NCBI GenBank assembly: GCA_026414725.1
Contig: JAOAIL010000003.1
Location: 1-64,000 of the forward strand
Reading direction: 5' to 3'
Length of the DNA stretch: 64,000 bases
Source: a bacterium
GTDB lineage: Bacteria > Ratteibacteria > UBA8468 > B48-G9 > JAFGKM01
Part shown: positions 32,743 to 38,598 of the stretch, piece after piece
How the letters are laid out: each line of letters starts with the position of its first letter
How positions within the stretch are numbered: the first letter of the stretch is position 1
Position numbers and translations under genes: made by a program
Notes under the pieces: model-generated
The model's database searches: none
What the model was told of the DNA's origin: nothing
The model's input: only the letters and a program-made list of their open reading frames with translations

Positions 32743-33537
32743 ATGGCAAAGAGATATAAAGTAAACGATTTTCAGGGGTATCAAAAAATAGTAAGCCCTG
32801 AAAATTCTGACCTTAAAAACATACATCTTGCTGTGATAAGAAATCCATCTGGTACAAGATTTGATGGTAATACAGGTGATGAAGAAAATGTGTTTATAAT
32901 AACTGAAGGGAACATAAAATTTTTTCTGGAAGATAAATTACTTGCAGAACTCTCAAGGGAAGATGTATTTCAAGAACCACCTTCTGCTATCTATCTACCA
33001 CCCCATTCAAATTACTATATTGAATTTATTGAAAAAAGTGAGATATGTATAGCAGGGTGTATAGCTACAGGTAGATTTAAACCACAGGCCGTTTATAAGG
33101 GGCATATACGTATTAAAAGAGTAGGGGAGGAGATTTTCTTCCGAAACATTATAGAAATAATTCCCGAAGATTTTCCAGCAGAAAATCTCATTGTAGGTGA
33201 GACAATTACAGACCCTGGGAACTGGGCAAGTTATCCTCCACATAAGCATGATACAGATAATCCTCCAGAAGAAACAGCACTTGAAGAGTTATATTTCTTT
33301 AAGATCAGACCTGAAACCGGTTTTGGTTCAATACGGATATTTAACAACCCAGAGGATTACATATTTCTTATAAAAAATAATGAGGTTATTACAATTCCTA
33401 AGGGATACCATCCTGTGAGTGTTGCGCCAAAACATCAACTTTATTATTTATGGATTATGGCAGGAAATACGAGAAAGGTACTATCTACGGTTCATCCTGC
33501 CTATAAGTTCATCAATAAAAATTTCAATAGGGGGTAA
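32743..33537 (+). CDS. IolB/KduI-type uronate isomerase
   Basis: A 264-residue bicupin of the IolB/KduI superfamily, closest in motif to IolB (5-deoxy-glucuronate isomerase). The metal site is visible as SYPPHKHDTDNPPEETALEE (two His and a Glu, about 165-184), with a further His in IPKGYHPVSVAPKH. IolB normally acts in inositol breakdown, but no other iol gene is present. All neighbours act on hexuronates. KduI/IolB enzymes interconvert aldose and ketose forms of uronates. An isomerisation of glucuronate or galacturonate to fructuronate or tagaturonate, replacing UxaC, is therefore the likely role here (inference). First gene of the operon. Confidence 0.8.
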   Translation: MAKRYKVNDFQGYQKIVSPENSDLKNIHLAVIRNPSGTRFDGNTGDEENVFIITEGNIKFFLEDKLLAELSREDVFQEPPSAIYLPPHSNYYIEFIEKSEICIAGCIATGRFKPQAVYKGHIRIKRVGEEIFFRNIIEIIPEDFPAENLIVGETITDPGNWASYPPHKHDTDNPPEETALEELYFFKIRPETGFGSIRIFNNPEDYIFLIKNNEVITIPKGYHPVSVAPKHQLYYLWIMAGNTRKVLSTVHPAYKFINKNFNRG

Positions 33538-33539
33538 AG

Positions 33540-34361
33540 ATGGAATACTTAGTAAAAATGTTTTCCCTTGAGGGCAAAAAAGCAGTGATTACAGGAGGTG
33601 GAGGAGTACTTGGTTCAGAGATAGCGAGAGTACTCGGGATGGCAGGTGCTTATATATTCATATGTGACATTAAAAACTATAATGAAACAGCAGAAATGTT
33701 AAGGAAGGAAGGGATTAGGGCAGAAGGTTATTTTATGAATGTTCTGGAAAAAAATGTTATAAAAGATACTGCAGACAAAATACTGAAAAATGGAAAGATA
33801 AATATACTTGTGAATGCAGCGGGCGGTAATGTAAAAGAAGCAACTACCTCTGACACCATGTCCTTTTTTGACCTACCTCTTGAAGGACTTGAAAAAGTGA
33901 TTGCCCTCAATCTCTATGGAGGGGCAATATTACCATCTCAGATATTTGGTAAAGCAATGGCAGAAAATTCTGAAGGTGGCTCCATTATTAACATTTCCTC
34001 AATGAATGCCTTCAGACCACTTACACGAATCCCTGGATATTCAGCGGCTAAAGCAGCAGTAAGTAATTTTACTCAATGGCTTGCCGTGCATCTCGCTCAG
34101 GAATATAACACAAAATTAAGGGTAAATGCTATAGCCCCAGGATTTTTTCTTACACAGCAGAATAGATATTTACTAATGGATGAAAAAGGTACTTTAACAG
34201 CACGGGGACAGTCAATCATATCCCACACACCTATGAAAAGATTTGGAGAACCGGACGATTTAGCAGGTATTGTGATATATCTTGCTTCAGATGCTTCTAA
34301 ATTTGTTACAGGAACAGTAATACCTGTAGATGGGGGATTCAACGCTTTTGCTGGAGTGTAA
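33540..34361 (+). CDS. uxuB: SDR-type D-fructuronate reductase (mannonate oxidoreductase)
   Basis: A 273-residue short-chain dehydrogenase. It has the cofactor loop TGGGGVLGSEIA (18-29), the NAAGG motif (92-96), the catalytic Ser around 153-154, and the YxxxK pair Tyr167/Lys171 in GYSAAK. The C-terminal VTGTVIPVDGG is standard. The extended glycine loop and the NAAGGN segment match the Bacillus-type UxuB family that reduces D-fructuronate to D-mannonate with NAD(P)H; E. coli uses an unrelated enzyme. It starts 2 bp after the isomerase gene. Context with UxaE, whose product is fructuronate, supports this substrate. A gluconate 5-dehydrogenase-like role is the main alternative. Confidence 0.8.
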   Translation: MEYLVKMFSLEGKKAVITGGGGVLGSEIARVLGMAGAYIFICDIKNYNETAEMLRKEGIRAEGYFMNVLEKNVIKDTADKILKNGKINILVNAAGGNVKEATTSDTMSFFDLPLEGLEKVIALNLYGGAILPSQIFGKAMAENSEGGSIINISSMNAFRPLTRIPGYSAAKAAVSNFTQWLAVHLAQEYNTKLRVNAIAPGFFLTQQNRYLLMDEKGTLTARGQSIISHTPMKRFGEPDDLAGIVIYLASDASKFVTGTVIPVDGGFNAFAGV

Positions 34362-34385: not shown

Positions 34386-35882
34386 ATGAAAGTAAAAGCA
34401 GATATTGGTGTAATAGGAATGGAAGTTATGGGAAAAAATCTTGCCCTGAATATGGAGAGTAAGGGCTATACCGTAGCTGTATTTAACAGAACAGAGGCAA
34501 AAACAAAGGACTTTGCAGAAGGACCTGCAAAAGGGAAAAATATCATCCCTACTTATGAACTTCAGAACTTTGTAGATGCCCTTAAAAAACCGAGAAAGAT
34601 TATGTTAATGGTGAAAGAAGGTGCACCTGTAGACGGTTTTATTGAGCAATTGATTCCACTGCTTGATAAGGGAGACCTTATAATAGATGGAGGAAACTCA
34701 TTCTTTAAAGATACTATAAGAAGGAATACAGAACTTCAAGGGAAAGGTATCCTATTTATAGGAACAGGTGTTTCTGGTGGAGAAGAAGGTGCTCTTAAAG
34801 GTCCTGCCATCATGCCTGGAGGACAGTTAGAAGCATATAAACTTGTAGAGAATATTTTTATTGATATTTCAGCGAAAGCAGAAGATGGAGAACCCTGTGT
34901 AACCTATATAGGACCGGATGGAGCAGGGCACTTTGTTAAGACGACTCATAATGGTATTGAATATGGAGATATGCAACTGATTGGTGAATGTGCCTGGTTT
35001 TTCAAAAAAGGACTCGGTATGAGTTCTGGGGAAATAGCAGATATTATGGCTGAATGGAACGGGAAAAACGACATTCTTCGTTCATATCTCATAGAGATAA
35101 CGGCTGATAGTATGAAAGAAAAACACAAAGCAGGAGATGGTTATCTTGTAGATATAGTAGCAGATATCACAAGGATGAAAGGTACAGGAACATGGACTGT
35201 TCAGAGTGCACTTGAATTACTTGTACCTGTCCCTACTATTGCTTCTGCTGTCTTCTCACGTGAAATGTCCCAGGATAAAGATATCCGTCTGAAAATGTCA
35301 AAGATATTAAATATCCCTGCAGGTGAAAAATTCACCGGTAATAAAAAAGATGTTATAGATATAGCCCATGATGCACTCTACATTGCTAAAATATCTTCTT
35401 ATGCTCAGGGATTGGCATTACTACAGGCAGCATCAAAGGTATATAATTTTAATTTAAATTTAGGAGAAATAGCGAAGATATGGAGAGGAGGATGTATTAT
35501 AAGAGCACAGTTCCTTGATGAGATTACAAAATCATATAAAGAAAACCCTGAACTGCCCAATCTCCTTTCTGCTCCAAGATTTTCCTCCTTTGTTAATAAA
35601 AATCTATGGAAATTAGGGAAATTTATAGAGATTGCTCACAATGCAGGAACTCCTGTTCTCGGTATGGCATCCTCATATGACTATATCCTTCAAATTGCAT
35701 CACCTGTAATGTTCTCAGCACAGGTAGCAGCACTACAACGTGATTATTTTGGTGCTCATGGTTATTTCAAGATAGGTGGAGAAAACAAACCAGAAATAAT
35801 CACCACATCTGATGGTAAGATAAGAGAATTCCATACCGAATGGCTTGTGAAAGGAAGGCCAGAAAAAGAAATAACAAAATAA
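34386..35882 (+). CDS. gnd: 6-Phosphogluconate dehydrogenase (decarboxylating)
   Basis: Oxidises 6-phosphogluconate to ribulose-5-phosphate and CO2, producing NAD(P)H. The 498-residue protein is the long, dimeric form. It has the N-terminal Rossmann loop GVIGMEVMGKNLALN, FNRT, the IIDGGNSFFKDT segment, the substrate signature GTGVSGGEEGALKGP (about 128-142) and the catalytic Lys in GHFVKTTHNGIEYGDM (about 185). The all-helical C-terminal domain is complete. AAGGAGGAGAGG precedes the start. Its place in an uronate operon is unusual unless the pathway yields gluconate or 6-phosphogluconate (see findings). A strong hairpin follows the gene. Confidence 0.93.
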   Translation: MKVKADIGVIGMEVMGKNLALNMESKGYTVAVFNRTEAKTKDFAEGPAKGKNIIPTYELQNFVDALKKPRKIMLMVKEGAPVDGFIEQLIPLLDKGDLIIDGGNSFFKDTIRRNTELQGKGILFIGTGVSGGEEGALKGPAIMPGGQLEAYKLVENIFIDISAKAEDGEPCVTYIGPDGAGHFVKTTHNGIEYGDMQLIGECAWFFKKGLGMSSGEIADIMAEWNGKNDILRSYLIEITADSMKEKHKAGDGYLVDIVADITRMKGTGTWTVQSALELLVPVPTIASAVFSREMSQDKDIRLKMSKILNIPAGEKFTGNKKDVIDIAHDALYIAKISSYAQGLALLQAASKVYNFNLNLGEIAKIWRGGCIIRAQFLDEITKSYKENPELPNLLSAPRFSSFVNKNLWKLGKFIEIAHNAGTPVLGMASSYDYILQIASPVMFSAQVAALQRDYFGAHGYFKIGGENKPEIITTSDGKIREFHTEWLVKGRPEKEITK

Positions 35883-35895
35883 CTTTTACTCATTA

Positions 35896-35930
35896 CTTAT
35901 ACCCTCTCCTCAAAAAGGAGAGGGTATAAG
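35896..35930 (+). terminator. 15-bp hairpin between gnd and larA-like gene
   Basis: A perfect 15-bp stem (35896-35910 with 35916-35930) around a 5-base loop, centred on CCCTCTCC/GGAGAGGG. It lies inside the operon rather than at its end and lacks an immediate T-run. It probably attenuates transcription or protects the upstream mRNA. The stem core repeats that of the hairpin at 2352-2382. Confidence 0.6.
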
Positions 35931-35951
35931 TAGTAAAAAAGCAGAGAAAAA

Positions 35952-37235
35952 ATGTACAGAGGCAAAGGGAGTAAAATAGAACCGGTAAGTATAAAAGAGT
36001 TATATAAAATTGTAGAAGATGTCCTTTACGGAGTAAAAAACTTTTCAAATAAAAATGTTCTTGTTGTTATTCCTGATACAACCCGTTCAGGACCTACAGA
36101 TATTATTTTTAAATATATACATATGGTTCTTACTCCTGTAGTGAAAAAAGTTGATTTTCTTATAGCCCTCGGGACCCATCCCCCAATGCCTGAAGAGAAG
36201 GTAAATGCATTTTTAAAGATAACAGAAAAAGATAGAAAGACAATTTATAAAGATACATCTATTTTACAGCATGAATGGGATAAACCTGAAGGGTTAGCAC
36301 ATATAGGAACCATATCTGCGGAGGACATGAAAGAAATTTCTGGTGGGCTAATGTCAGAAGATATCCCTGTTACTATAAACAAAAAAGTTCTTGACTATGA
36401 CGAAGTTATTCTTGCAGGTCCTGTATTCCCTCACGAAGTTGTTGGATTTTCTGGAGGATATAAATATCTTTTCCCTGGTATATCAGGTCCTGATTTTCTC
36501 CATAAATTTCACTGGCTCGGGGCACTTATAACCAATCCAAAAATCAATGGAACAAAAGATACACCTGTAAGAAGGGCGTTGAATAAAGCAGCATCGTTAT
36601 TAAGAGTTCCTATAACACTTTTATGTTATGTGGTTAAAGAAGGAGATATATATGGTTTTTATGGAGGTGATGTTGAAGCATGGTCAGAAGCAGCAGACCT
36701 ATCTTCTGATTTGAATATAAAGTATGTTGAAAGACCTTACAGAACAGTGCTTTCTATCGCTCCGGATATGTATGAAGATATCTGGACTGCAGGAAAGTGT
36801 ATGTATAAACTTGAACCGGTAGTGGCTGATGGAGGAACACTTATTATATATGCTCCTCATGTGAAAGATGTTTCTCACACACATGGTAAAGAGATAGAGA
36901 AGGTTGGTTATCACACGAGAGATTATTTTTTAAAACAGATGGATAAATTTAAAAATGTTTCTGGCTGTATCCTTGCCCATTCAACCCATGTAAAGGGTAT
37001 AGGTACATTTATAGATGGAGTTGAAAAACCCAGAATAGAGGTGGTGCTTGCAACAGGTATACCAGAAGATATATGTAAAAAGATTAATCTCGGATATATG
37101 GACTACAGAACGATTAATATGGAGAGATATAAACAAGATATAGATACCCTTGTAGTAGAAAAGGCAGGTGAAGTACTTTACAGATTGAAGGATGGTACTG
37201 TCCCGGATATAGATAAACTTTATGGAAAATTTTAA
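35952..37235 (+). CDS. LarA-family nickel-pincer racemase/epimerase
   Basis: A 427-residue member of the LarA (DUF2088) family, whose founding member racemises lactate with a nickel-pincer nucleotide cofactor. The residues that matter in LarA are present at matching spacing: DTTR (42-45), GTH with His76, His161, Lys171 ten residues later (the lysine that bonds the cofactor) and His187 sixteen residues after that (nickel ligand). The protein should therefore be an active cofactor-dependent enzyme. Other family members act on different 2-hydroxy acids, including gluconate at C2. In this operon a mannonate/gluconate 2-epimerase role is attractive (inference). The cofactor genes larB, larC and larE are not in the window. 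The gene overlaps uxaE by 14 bp. Confidence 0.85.
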   Translation: MYRGKGSKIEPVSIKELYKIVEDVLYGVKNFSNKNVLVVIPDTTRSGPTDIIFKYIHMVLTPVVKKVDFLIALGTHPPMPEEKVNAFLKITEKDRKTIYKDTSILQHEWDKPEGLAHIGTISAEDMKEISGGLMSEDIPVTINKKVLDYDEVILAGPVFPHEVVGFSGGYKYLFPGISGPDFLHKFHWLGALITNPKINGTKDTPVRRALNKAASLLRVPITLLCYVVKEGDIYGFYGGDVEAWSEAADLSSDLNIKYVERPYRTVLSIAPDMYEDIWTAGKCMYKLEPVVADGGTLIIYAPHVKDVSHTHGKEIEKVGYHTRDYFLKQMDKFKNVSGCILAHSTHVKGIGTFIDGVEKPRIEVVLATGIPEDICKKINLGYMDYRTINMERYKQDIDTLVVEKAGEVLYRLKDGTVPDIDKLYGKF

Positions 37236-38598
37236 AAAATCTTATCCTGACTTTAGAATATATGAAAATTCTATAAATGAAGCAGGTAATAAATATATCT
37301 TTCTTGTTTCAAAGGATAATAGTAAATTTATAGTCATTGGAAAAACAGATTTCAAATTTCTTCCTGCGAGTGAGAATGTAGATATTCTTCTTGAAAATTT
37401 TCCTTTTTTAAAACCTACTACCTGTGGATTAAAAAGGTCTTTTGGCTTTGGTGACCGACTTGGAATTTCTACACCAGGACATATAAGAGCAGTTAAGGAT
37501 TATCCCTTTTTTCCTTTATTTGCACAGCAGTCAGTAAGGGAATTAGAAAGAACAGGAAGAACTTTCAAAGATGTAAGGAACTCTGCTGTATTAGGATGTT
37601 TCCAGGAGGGATATAAAGATGGATTTGGGGCAGACGCAGACCATATAAAAGAGATTAAATATCTCAAACAGGCAGCAGATGCTGGCTTTACATTCTTCAC
37701 AATAGACCCATCAGATAAGATACACAACCCTGCTGTTATGTCTGAAGAACAAAAAAAATATATTCTCGGTGGATATATATCTGCTTTTGAACAAAATTAT
37801 CTTAACAGGAGATATCATATTAAAAAAACTTCATATCTAATAGATAGGGATGCCCTTGAAGAACTTGTTATTACCTATGGAGAGGCAATAGACCATATTG
37901 AAGAATGTTATAAGTTTTTGAAAAATCACTGTAAAACATTTGACTTTGAGGTCTCTGTAGATGAGACATCTATACCTACAACTCCTTTAGCACATATCTT
38001 TATTGTTGAAGAATTACAGAGAAGAAATATCAATTTCCAGAGTATTGCATTTAGATTTCCCGGACATTTTGAAAAAGGAATCGATTATAATGGAGATATA
38101 AATGTCCTGAAAGAAACATTTATAGCACATCAGACAATACGTGAAAAGATGGGAAATTATAAAATTTCATTACATTCAGGTAGTGATAAACTTTCTATAT
38201 ATACACTATTCAAGGATATATTTGGGGATAAAATCCATATAAAAACATCAGGTACAAGCTGGATTGAAGCCGTAAAACTCATTGCTATGAAGGACTTTGG
38301 ACTTTTTCTTGAGATACTTAAAAATTGTCTTAAAGATTTTAAGGAAAATTCCGCTTCTTATGAGATATCAGCAAAACCAGAAAAAATAGATTTAGAAGAG
38401 ATAAAAGATATTTCTGTAGAAGATTTATTTAGAGATAATAATATCAGACAGATTATACATATAAGTTATGGAAGCATACTCGGTAAAAGTAATAGTAAAG
38501 AAGTCAAAGAAAGGTTTTTAAAGATTTTATATAAATATGAAGAAGAATATCATACATTGCTTAAATCACATCTTGATAATCATTTGAGATTGATATAG
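37222..38598 (+). CDS. uxaE: Tagaturonate epimerase (UxaE)
   Basis: A 458-residue protein of the UxaE family, first characterised in Thermotoga, which epimerises D-tagaturonate and D-fructuronate at C3 and so joins the galacturonate and glucuronate branches. Recognisable segments are KPTTCGLKRSFGFGDRLG (about 65-82), TPGHIRAV, FGADADHIKEIKYLKQAADAG, FTIDPSD, FEVSVDETSIPTTPLAH and SLHSGSDKLSIY, rich in possible metal-binding His, Asp and Glu. The length agrees with the family. It is the last gene of the operon and its start lies within the end of the LarA-like gene, so expression is coupled. Confidence 0.85.
   Translation: MENFKKSYPDFRIYENSINEAGNKYIFLVSKDNSKFIVIGKTDFKFLPASENVDILLENFPFLKPTTCGLKRSFGFGDRLGISTPGHIRAVKDYPFFPLFAQQSVRELERTGRTFKDVRNSAVLGCFQEGYKDGFGADADHIKEIKYLKQAADAGFTFFTIDPSDKIHNPAVMSEEQKKYILGGYISAFEQNYLNRRYHIKKTSYLIDRDALEELVITYGEAIDHIEECYKFLKNHCKTFDFEVSVDETSIPTTPLAHIFIVEELQRRNINFQSIAFRFPGHFEKGIDYNGDINVLKETFIAHQTIREKMGNYKISLHSGSDKLSIYTLFKDIFGDKIHIKTSGTSWIEAVKLIAMKDFGLFLEILKNCLKDFKENSASYEISAKPEKIDLEEIKDISVEDLFRDNNIRQIIHISYGSILGKSNSKEVKERFLKILYKYEEEYHTLLKSHLDNHLRLI

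What the first reader, a model, noticed from the sequence alone, without database searches (positions are those of the whole stretch)
35952..37235. LarA homologue keeps all cofactor-binding residues but sits in a sugar-acid operon
His76, His161, Lys171 and His187 match the spacing of LarA His108, His174, Lys184 (covalent cofactor lysine) and His200 (nickel ligand): 10 residues from the second His to Lys and 16 from Lys to the last His. The enzyme should bind the nickel-pincer nucleotide, yet no lactate gene or lar maturation gene is next to it. The substrate is thus probably a sugar acid.
Basis: partly seen in the sequence, partly recalled or inferred. Interest (0 to 1): 0.6.

Follow-up and report, generated by a model that had tools for sequence, protein, structure and literature searches.

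The report
Sugar-acid epimerase without its cofactor genes
The gene encodes a nickel-cofactor enzyme of the lactate racemase superfamily, most likely a D-mannonate/D-gluconate epimerase in a uronic-acid breakdown operon, and the odd part is that this bacterium and its closest relatives keep the enzyme intact while lacking every known gene for making its cofactor.

Summary
ORF 35952-37235 is a LarA homologue (Pfam Lar_N). It has Asp42, Arg45, His76, His161, Lys171, His187 and Lys282 at the positions of LarA D72, R75, H108, H174, K184, H200 and K298. The closest solved relative is 4NAR, the T. maritima D-gluconate 2-epimerase GntE2 (238 bits against 35 for LarA; fold TM-score 0.85), and the GntE pocket signature E-V-A-H is present. 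The operon (KduI/IolB-like, mannonate oxidoreductase, Gnd, LarA homologue, UxaE) fits uronate to mannonate to gluconate to pentose phosphate. In fact none was found in the whole genome (96% complete): no LarC, no LarE, and the only AIRC protein is PurE. The same holds for all 7 genomes of this genus and a sister genus, 4 of which keep the enzyme. Most other genera of the phylum have LarB, LarC and LarE. LarC is also missing from 16 of 50 genomes elsewhere with this enzyme, including all five Bipolaricaulota-clade members. The cofactor residues are invariant and dN/dS is about 0.1. How these enzymes get their cofactor is open. The gluconate kinase was not identified.

The parts
35952..37235 (+). 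LarA homologue (GntE-like hexonate 2-epimerase), 427 aa
   Evidence: PF09861 86.2 bits; 4NAR E=1.2e-69; fold TM 0.85/0.87 to 4NAR
36075..36086 (+). Asp42 and Arg45 codons (LarA D72 catalytic, R75 NPN binding)
   Evidence: alignment
36177..36179 (+). His76 codon (LarA catalytic H108)
   Evidence: alignment
36432..36440 (+). His161-Glu162-Val163 codons (LarA catalytic H174; E-V is the GntE substrate signature)
   Evidence: signature from PMC11770544 section 6
36462..36464 (+). Lys171 codon (LarA K184, covalent cofactor lysine)
   Evidence: invariant in 20 LarC-less and 50 LarC-bearing genomes
36510..36512 (+). His187 codon (LarA H200, nickel ligand)
36783..36797 (+). Trp278-Thr279-Ala280-Gly281-Lys282 (K282 = LarA catalytic K298; W, T and G as in GntE2)
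36975..36980 (+). Ala342-His343 (GntE A-H signature)
   Evidence: PMC11770544 section 6
32743..33537 (+). KduI/IolB-family protein, candidate uronate isomerase
   Evidence: PF04962 206 bits; IolB model TIGR04378 190 bits, under its cut-off of 205
33540..34361 (+). SDR, D-mannonate oxidoreductase type (fructuronate reductase)
   Evidence: NF006132 342.8 bits, cut-off 281
34386..35882 (+). Gnd, decarboxylating 6-phosphogluconate dehydrogenase
   Evidence: TIGR00873 577.6 bits, cut-off 426.7
37222..38598 (+). UxaE, tagaturonate epimerase; overlaps the larA-homologue stop by 14 bases
   Evidence: PF16257 497 bits; overlap read

Best explanation
ORF 35952-37235 is a GntE-like C2-epimerase of the LarA superfamily. 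It interconverts D-mannonate and D-gluconate so that uronic acids can enter the pentose phosphate pathway: uronate to tagaturonate/fructuronate (KduI/IolB-like protein), tagaturonate to fructuronate (UxaE), fructuronate to mannonate (SDR), mannonate to gluconate (this enzyme), gluconate to 6-phosphogluconate (kinase not identified), then ribulose 5-phosphate (Gnd). By analogy with LarA, a hydride leaves C2 to the pincer cofactor held by Lys171 and His187 while His76 and His161 exchange the proton, and the planar keto intermediate is reduced from the other face. The organism lacks the known cofactor pathway (LarB, LarC, LarE), and so do its genus and a sister genus. The enzyme must therefore receive NPN, or an NPN-like cofactor, from an unrecognised source: uptake from other microbes or an undescribed synthesis. 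Shown by computation: family, residues, operon, absence of the genes from the assemblies. Inferred: the reaction, its direction, and the cofactor source.
For: Family and branch. The GntE signature E162, V163, A342, H343 and GntE2-like W278, T279, G281. GntE2 of T. maritima is an assayed D-mannonate/D-gluconate epimerase (PMC7583248). Operon conserved in the phylum, and in 80 loci from many phyla the gene lies with gnd (50), SDR (38), HAD (37), uxaE (24) and a PFK-like gene (22). UxuA is absent from this genome and all but absent from the phylum (3 of 35 genomes barely pass the cut-off, with partial matches), so mannonate needs another exit. In the genus and sister genus, UxaE and the epimerase are both present in G000, G015, G016, G018 and both absent in G014, G017, G019. 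No LarC, no LarE over the cut-off and no long AIRC protein (LarB) in any of these 7 genomes, while LarC is found over the cut-off in 23 and LarE in 24 of the other 28 genomes of the phylum. G000 is 96% complete; in G025 the three genes lie on three contigs, so they are not lost as one piece. dN/dS is 0.08-0.14 within the LarBCE-less genus.
Against: No activity is measured. No gluconokinase was found: the three FGGY kinases fit xylulokinase, rhamnulokinase and ribulokinase models, and SKI-type GntK was not searched. All genomes are fragmented draft assemblies. No salvage or alternative NPN route is known to me, so the proposed source is an inference with no positive evidence. The protein falls below the NCBIfam cut-off for the hexonate epimerase model (182.8 against 500) and is only 37% identical to GntE2.
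Confidence: 0.62

Rival explanations
1. Ordinary GntE: the organism does have larB, larC and larE, but these genes are missing from the draft assemblies or too divergent to be recognised.
For: All genomes are drafts, this one of 76 contigs; 16 of 50 genomes in other phyla also read LarC-negative, some perhaps through incompleteness.
Against: Three genes, on different contigs in G025, are missing together in G000 (96% complete), G015 (91%), G018 (94%) and G016 (54%). Treating losses as independent, my arithmetic gives about 1e-12. The same profiles find LarC and LarE in most other genera. LarC absence is clustered on the enzyme tree (0 of 500 shuffles).
Confidence: 0.17
2. The enzyme works without NPN: this lineage uses another hydride acceptor or no cofactor, and Lys171 and His187 are kept for another reason.
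For: It would explain retention of the enzyme without LarBCE in several lineages.
Against: Cofactor and catalytic residues are identical in all 20 LarC-less and 50 LarC-bearing sequences, and no column separates the two sets. Only residues 55 and 152 differ consistently between the four phylum sequences and their relatives. A changed cofactor should leave a trace.
Confidence: 0.12
3. The substrate is a different 2-hydroxy sugar acid, or the pathway runs towards uronate synthesis.
For: Only 37% identity to GntE2; no dedicated gluconokinase found; an HAD hydrolase rather than a sugar-acid kinase is the usual extra neighbour; some relatives (G021, G022, G025, G027) have the enzyme but no UxaE.
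Against: E-V-A-H signature and neighbours that make mannonate and use 6-phosphogluconate.
Confidence: 0.18
4. It is a lactate or malate racemase.
For: Same superfamily.
Against: LarA and malate racemase profiles score 65-106 bits against cut-offs of 460-500; F175/F176 are replaced by E/V; fold nearest 4NAR (TM 0.85) against 0.57-0.73 for lactate and malate racemases; sugar-acid operon.
Confidence: 0.02

Closest known systems
GntE2 / LarAH20, Thermotoga maritima D-gluconate 2-epimerase (PDB 4NAR; PMC7583248)
   Same: Same fold (TM 0.85-0.87), all cofactor and catalytic residues, E after the second catalytic His, W-T-x-G-K, and the same hexuronate pathway in an organism that also has UxaE
   Different: 37% identity; Val163 in place of Ser; T. 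maritima has LarC (control) and a working LarE (PMC9283937), this genome has no LarC and no LarE over the cut-off
NCBIfam NF052594 nickel-dependent putative hexonate epimerase (LarAH group 18)
   Same: Best NCBIfam match, covering residues 13-396
   Different: 182.8 bits, far below the 500-bit cut-off; a separate subgroup
LarA, Lactiplantibacillus plantarum lactate racemase (5HUQ)
   Same: D72, R75, H108, H174, K184, H200 and K298 all conserved
   Different: Substrate residues F175, F176, Y294, Q295, V297 changed to E, V, W, T, G; encoded with larB/larC/larE in L. plantarum (PMC9283937)

Membership tests
LarA superfamily (NPN-dependent 2-hydroxyacid racemases/epimerases) | Lar_N domain and LarA fold | tested here: met
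   PF09861 86.2 bits; fold match to LarA and 4NAR
LarA superfamily (NPN-dependent 2-hydroxyacid racemases/epimerases) | NPN-binding residues R75, K184, H200 | tested here: met
   R45, K171, H187
LarA superfamily (NPN-dependent 2-hydroxyacid racemases/epimerases) | Catalytic residues D72, H108, H174, K298 | tested here: met
   D42, H76, H161, K282
LarA superfamily (NPN-dependent 2-hydroxyacid racemases/epimerases) | Bound NPN / nickel | not testable with these tools
   needs mass spectrometry and metal analysis
LarA superfamily (NPN-dependent 2-hydroxyacid racemases/epimerases) | Genome encodes NPN synthesis (LarB, LarC, LarE); expected, not strictly defining | tested here: not met
   no LarC, no LarE over cut-off (best match is a GMP-synthetase-like protein), only AIRC is a 152-aa PurE
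GntE (D-gluconate 2-epimerase) branch | E, V, A, H at the positions of LarA F175, F176, W358, T359 | tested here: met
   E162, V163 by alignment to LarA; A342, H343 by alignment to GntE2 A351, H352, taken as the equivalents of W358, T359 because the LarA fragment aligned here ends before them
GntE (D-gluconate 2-epimerase) branch | Closer to GntE than to lactate or malate racemases | tested here: met
   238 against 35 bits; NCBIfam ranking
GntE (D-gluconate 2-epimerase) branch | Groups with GntE2 in a tree | tested here: inconclusive
   GntE2 has a long branch and the root is unsure
GntE (D-gluconate 2-epimerase) branch | D-mannonate/D-gluconate epimerase activity | not testable with these tools
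   assay needed
NF052594 hexonate epimerase (equivalog) | Score over 500 bits | tested here: not met
   182.8 bits

The most novel reading that the evidence does not exclude
Several bacterial lineages (this genus and its sister, the Bipolaricaulota clade, some KSB1) run a LarA-type epimerase on a nickel-pincer nucleotide that they do not make with LarB/LarC/LarE. Either NPN is shared between microbes like a vitamin, or a second NPN (or NPN-like) biosynthesis exists.
Probability: 0.5. Interest if true: 0.8.

Novelty: new variant of a known kind. Interest (0 to 1): 0.5.

Why it matters
NPN is a recently found organometallic cofactor. The papers read here report genomes with larB/C/E but no larA (about 15%, PMC11796402). 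The mirror case, an intact and conserved larA homologue in lineages without larB/C/E, was not found in those papers. If real, it points to cofactor exchange, a second biosynthesis or an NPN-free mechanism, and it gives concrete lineages in which to test this.

Tried and rejected
(1) Lactate or malate racemase: rejected by profiles, pocket residues and fold. (2) LarE candidate in the own genome at C9:54737: a 311-aa GMP-synthetase-like PP-loop protein, judged from its sequence; similar secondary matches occur in relatives that also have true LarE. (3) LarB candidate at C2:46710: 152-aa PurE. (4) LarC match in congener G016 (30 residues, below cut-off): a scrap beside an assembly N-gap between two ORFs that I read (from memory of the family) as halves of a broken DUF1854 gene, not a LarC gene. 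(5) Residue change explaining loss of NPN: none. (6) Relaxed selection or pseudogene: ORF intact in four genomes, dN/dS 0.08-0.14. (7) Gluconokinase among FGGY kinases: none over the GntK cut-off. (9) The 2014 LarA/LarBCE survey (PMC4066177) and the UxaE paper (PMC4505799) are not held, so I could not check whether larA without larBCE was noted there.

Full report
Observation. The ORF at 35952-37235 (+) is a 427-residue LarA homologue (PF09861 86.2 bits). The spacings 10 and 16 are as stated. The residues are invariant in 88 aligned sequences.

Branch and substrate. The best solved relative is 4NAR (E=1.2e-69, 238 bits), far ahead of lactate racemase (35 bits). The predicted structure (mean pLDDT 82.6) matches 4NAR with TM 0.85/0.87 and lactate or malate racemases with 0.57-0.73. 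The model is weak around residues 163-169, beside the active site. 4NAR is GntE2 of T. maritima, which converts D-mannonate to D-gluconate (PMC7583248). GntEs usually carry E, V, A, H at four pocket positions (PMC11770544); the query has E162, V163, A342, H343. The NCBIfam hexonate epimerase model is the best profile, but below its cut-off, so this is a separate subgroup at 37% identity to GntE2.

Operon. Upstream are a KduI/IolB-family protein (32743), an SDR of the D-mannonate oxidoreductase type over its cut-off (33540) and 6-phosphogluconate dehydrogenase over its cut-off (34386). Downstream, overlapping by 14 bases, is UxaE tagaturonate epimerase (37222). KduI is reported to convert galacturonate and glucuronate in E. 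coli (PMC3578941). The order iolB-SDR-gnd-larAH-uxaE is conserved in the phylum; in many relatives a PFK-like gene and/or an HAD hydrolase lie between gnd and larAH. In 80 loci from many phyla the enzyme sits with gnd in 50, SDR in 38, HAD in 37, UxaE in 24 and PFK-like in 22. UxuA is absent from this genome and, apart from a few partial matches near or under the cut-off, from the phylum. Mannonate therefore needs another exit, and C2 epimerisation to gluconate followed by Gnd fits. The missing link is gluconate kinase: the FGGY kinases of the genome are of other types.

The cofactor anomaly. That alone is normal: in none of the 80 loci is LarC or LarE within the fetched flank. But no LarC was found anywhere in this 96.4% complete genome. 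The best LarE-like match is a GMP-synthetase-like protein and the only AIRC protein is PurE. The phylum set has 35 genomes. In the own genus (5 genomes) and a sister genus (2 genomes) none has LarC, LarE over cut-off, or a LarB-length AIRC protein, although four of the seven keep the epimerase. Among the other 28 genomes LarC is over the cut-off in 23 and LarE in 24. In the seven genomes the epimerase and UxaE are present together (4) or absent together (3). In the LarBCE-less genus the gene is under purifying selection (dN/dS 0.08-0.14; for comparison gnd 0.04, SDR 0.07, iolB 0.08, uxaE 0.19; dS near 1 for most pairs, so rough).

Is it wider? LarC was sought in 50 genomes of other phyla that carry this enzyme: 34 have it, 16 do not. 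The LarC-negative ones include all five members of the Bipolaricaulota clade (starred branch) and all three KSB1 genomes tested. LarC status is clustered on the enzyme tree (11 changes, shuffled mean 17.9, 0 of 500 as low). Completeness of these genomes is not known and LarB/LarE were not tested there. No residue separates the LarC-less from the LarC-bearing sequences.

Interpretation. The enzyme is best read as a GntE-like epimerase that still uses the pincer-cofactor site. How it gets the cofactor is unexplained: uptake or exchange, an undescribed synthesis, an NPN-free mechanism, or (less likely) genes missed in the assemblies. Conserved Lys171 and His187 argue for a pincer cofactor; the joint absence of three unlinked genes argues against assembly gaps. 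Nothing here favours uptake over a new synthesis.

Organism. I could not name the GTDB phylum from the tools.

Noticed in passing
window 35892-35934: Perfect 19-bp inverted repeat with a 5-base loop in the gnd-larAH gap (fold z-score -7.6). It is unique in the window and not in other fetched loci, and sits where relatives carry the PFK-like and/or HAD genes.
   Followed up: partly
L098:7256-9751 (G018), L107, L109, L118 and others: A PFK-family protein (PF00365) and an uncharacterised HAD hydrolase of about 345 aa are repeatedly clustered with this epimerase across phyla. With no gluconokinase assigned, their roles (for example an unusual kinase) deserve a test.
   Followed up: partly
genomes G055, G063, G066, G071, G081 (loci L176, L188, L192, L199, L213): All five members of the Bipolaricaulota/Acetothermia clade with this epimerase lack LarC.
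   Followed up: partly
genomes G023, G024, G026: These have LarC and LarB but no LarE over cut-off and no LarA homologue, the mirror image of the window's genome; completeness is 77-90%.
   Followed up: no
L123:2255-2344 (G016:C96): A LarC-like 30-residue scrap next to an N-gap between what look like two halves of a broken gene; it looks like foreign sequence at a scaffold join.
   Followed up: yes
G008:C41, G006:C269, G010:C143, G004:C89, G005:C79: A second, lactate/malate-type LarA paralogue lies within about 5 kb of LarE in family f3.
   Followed up: no
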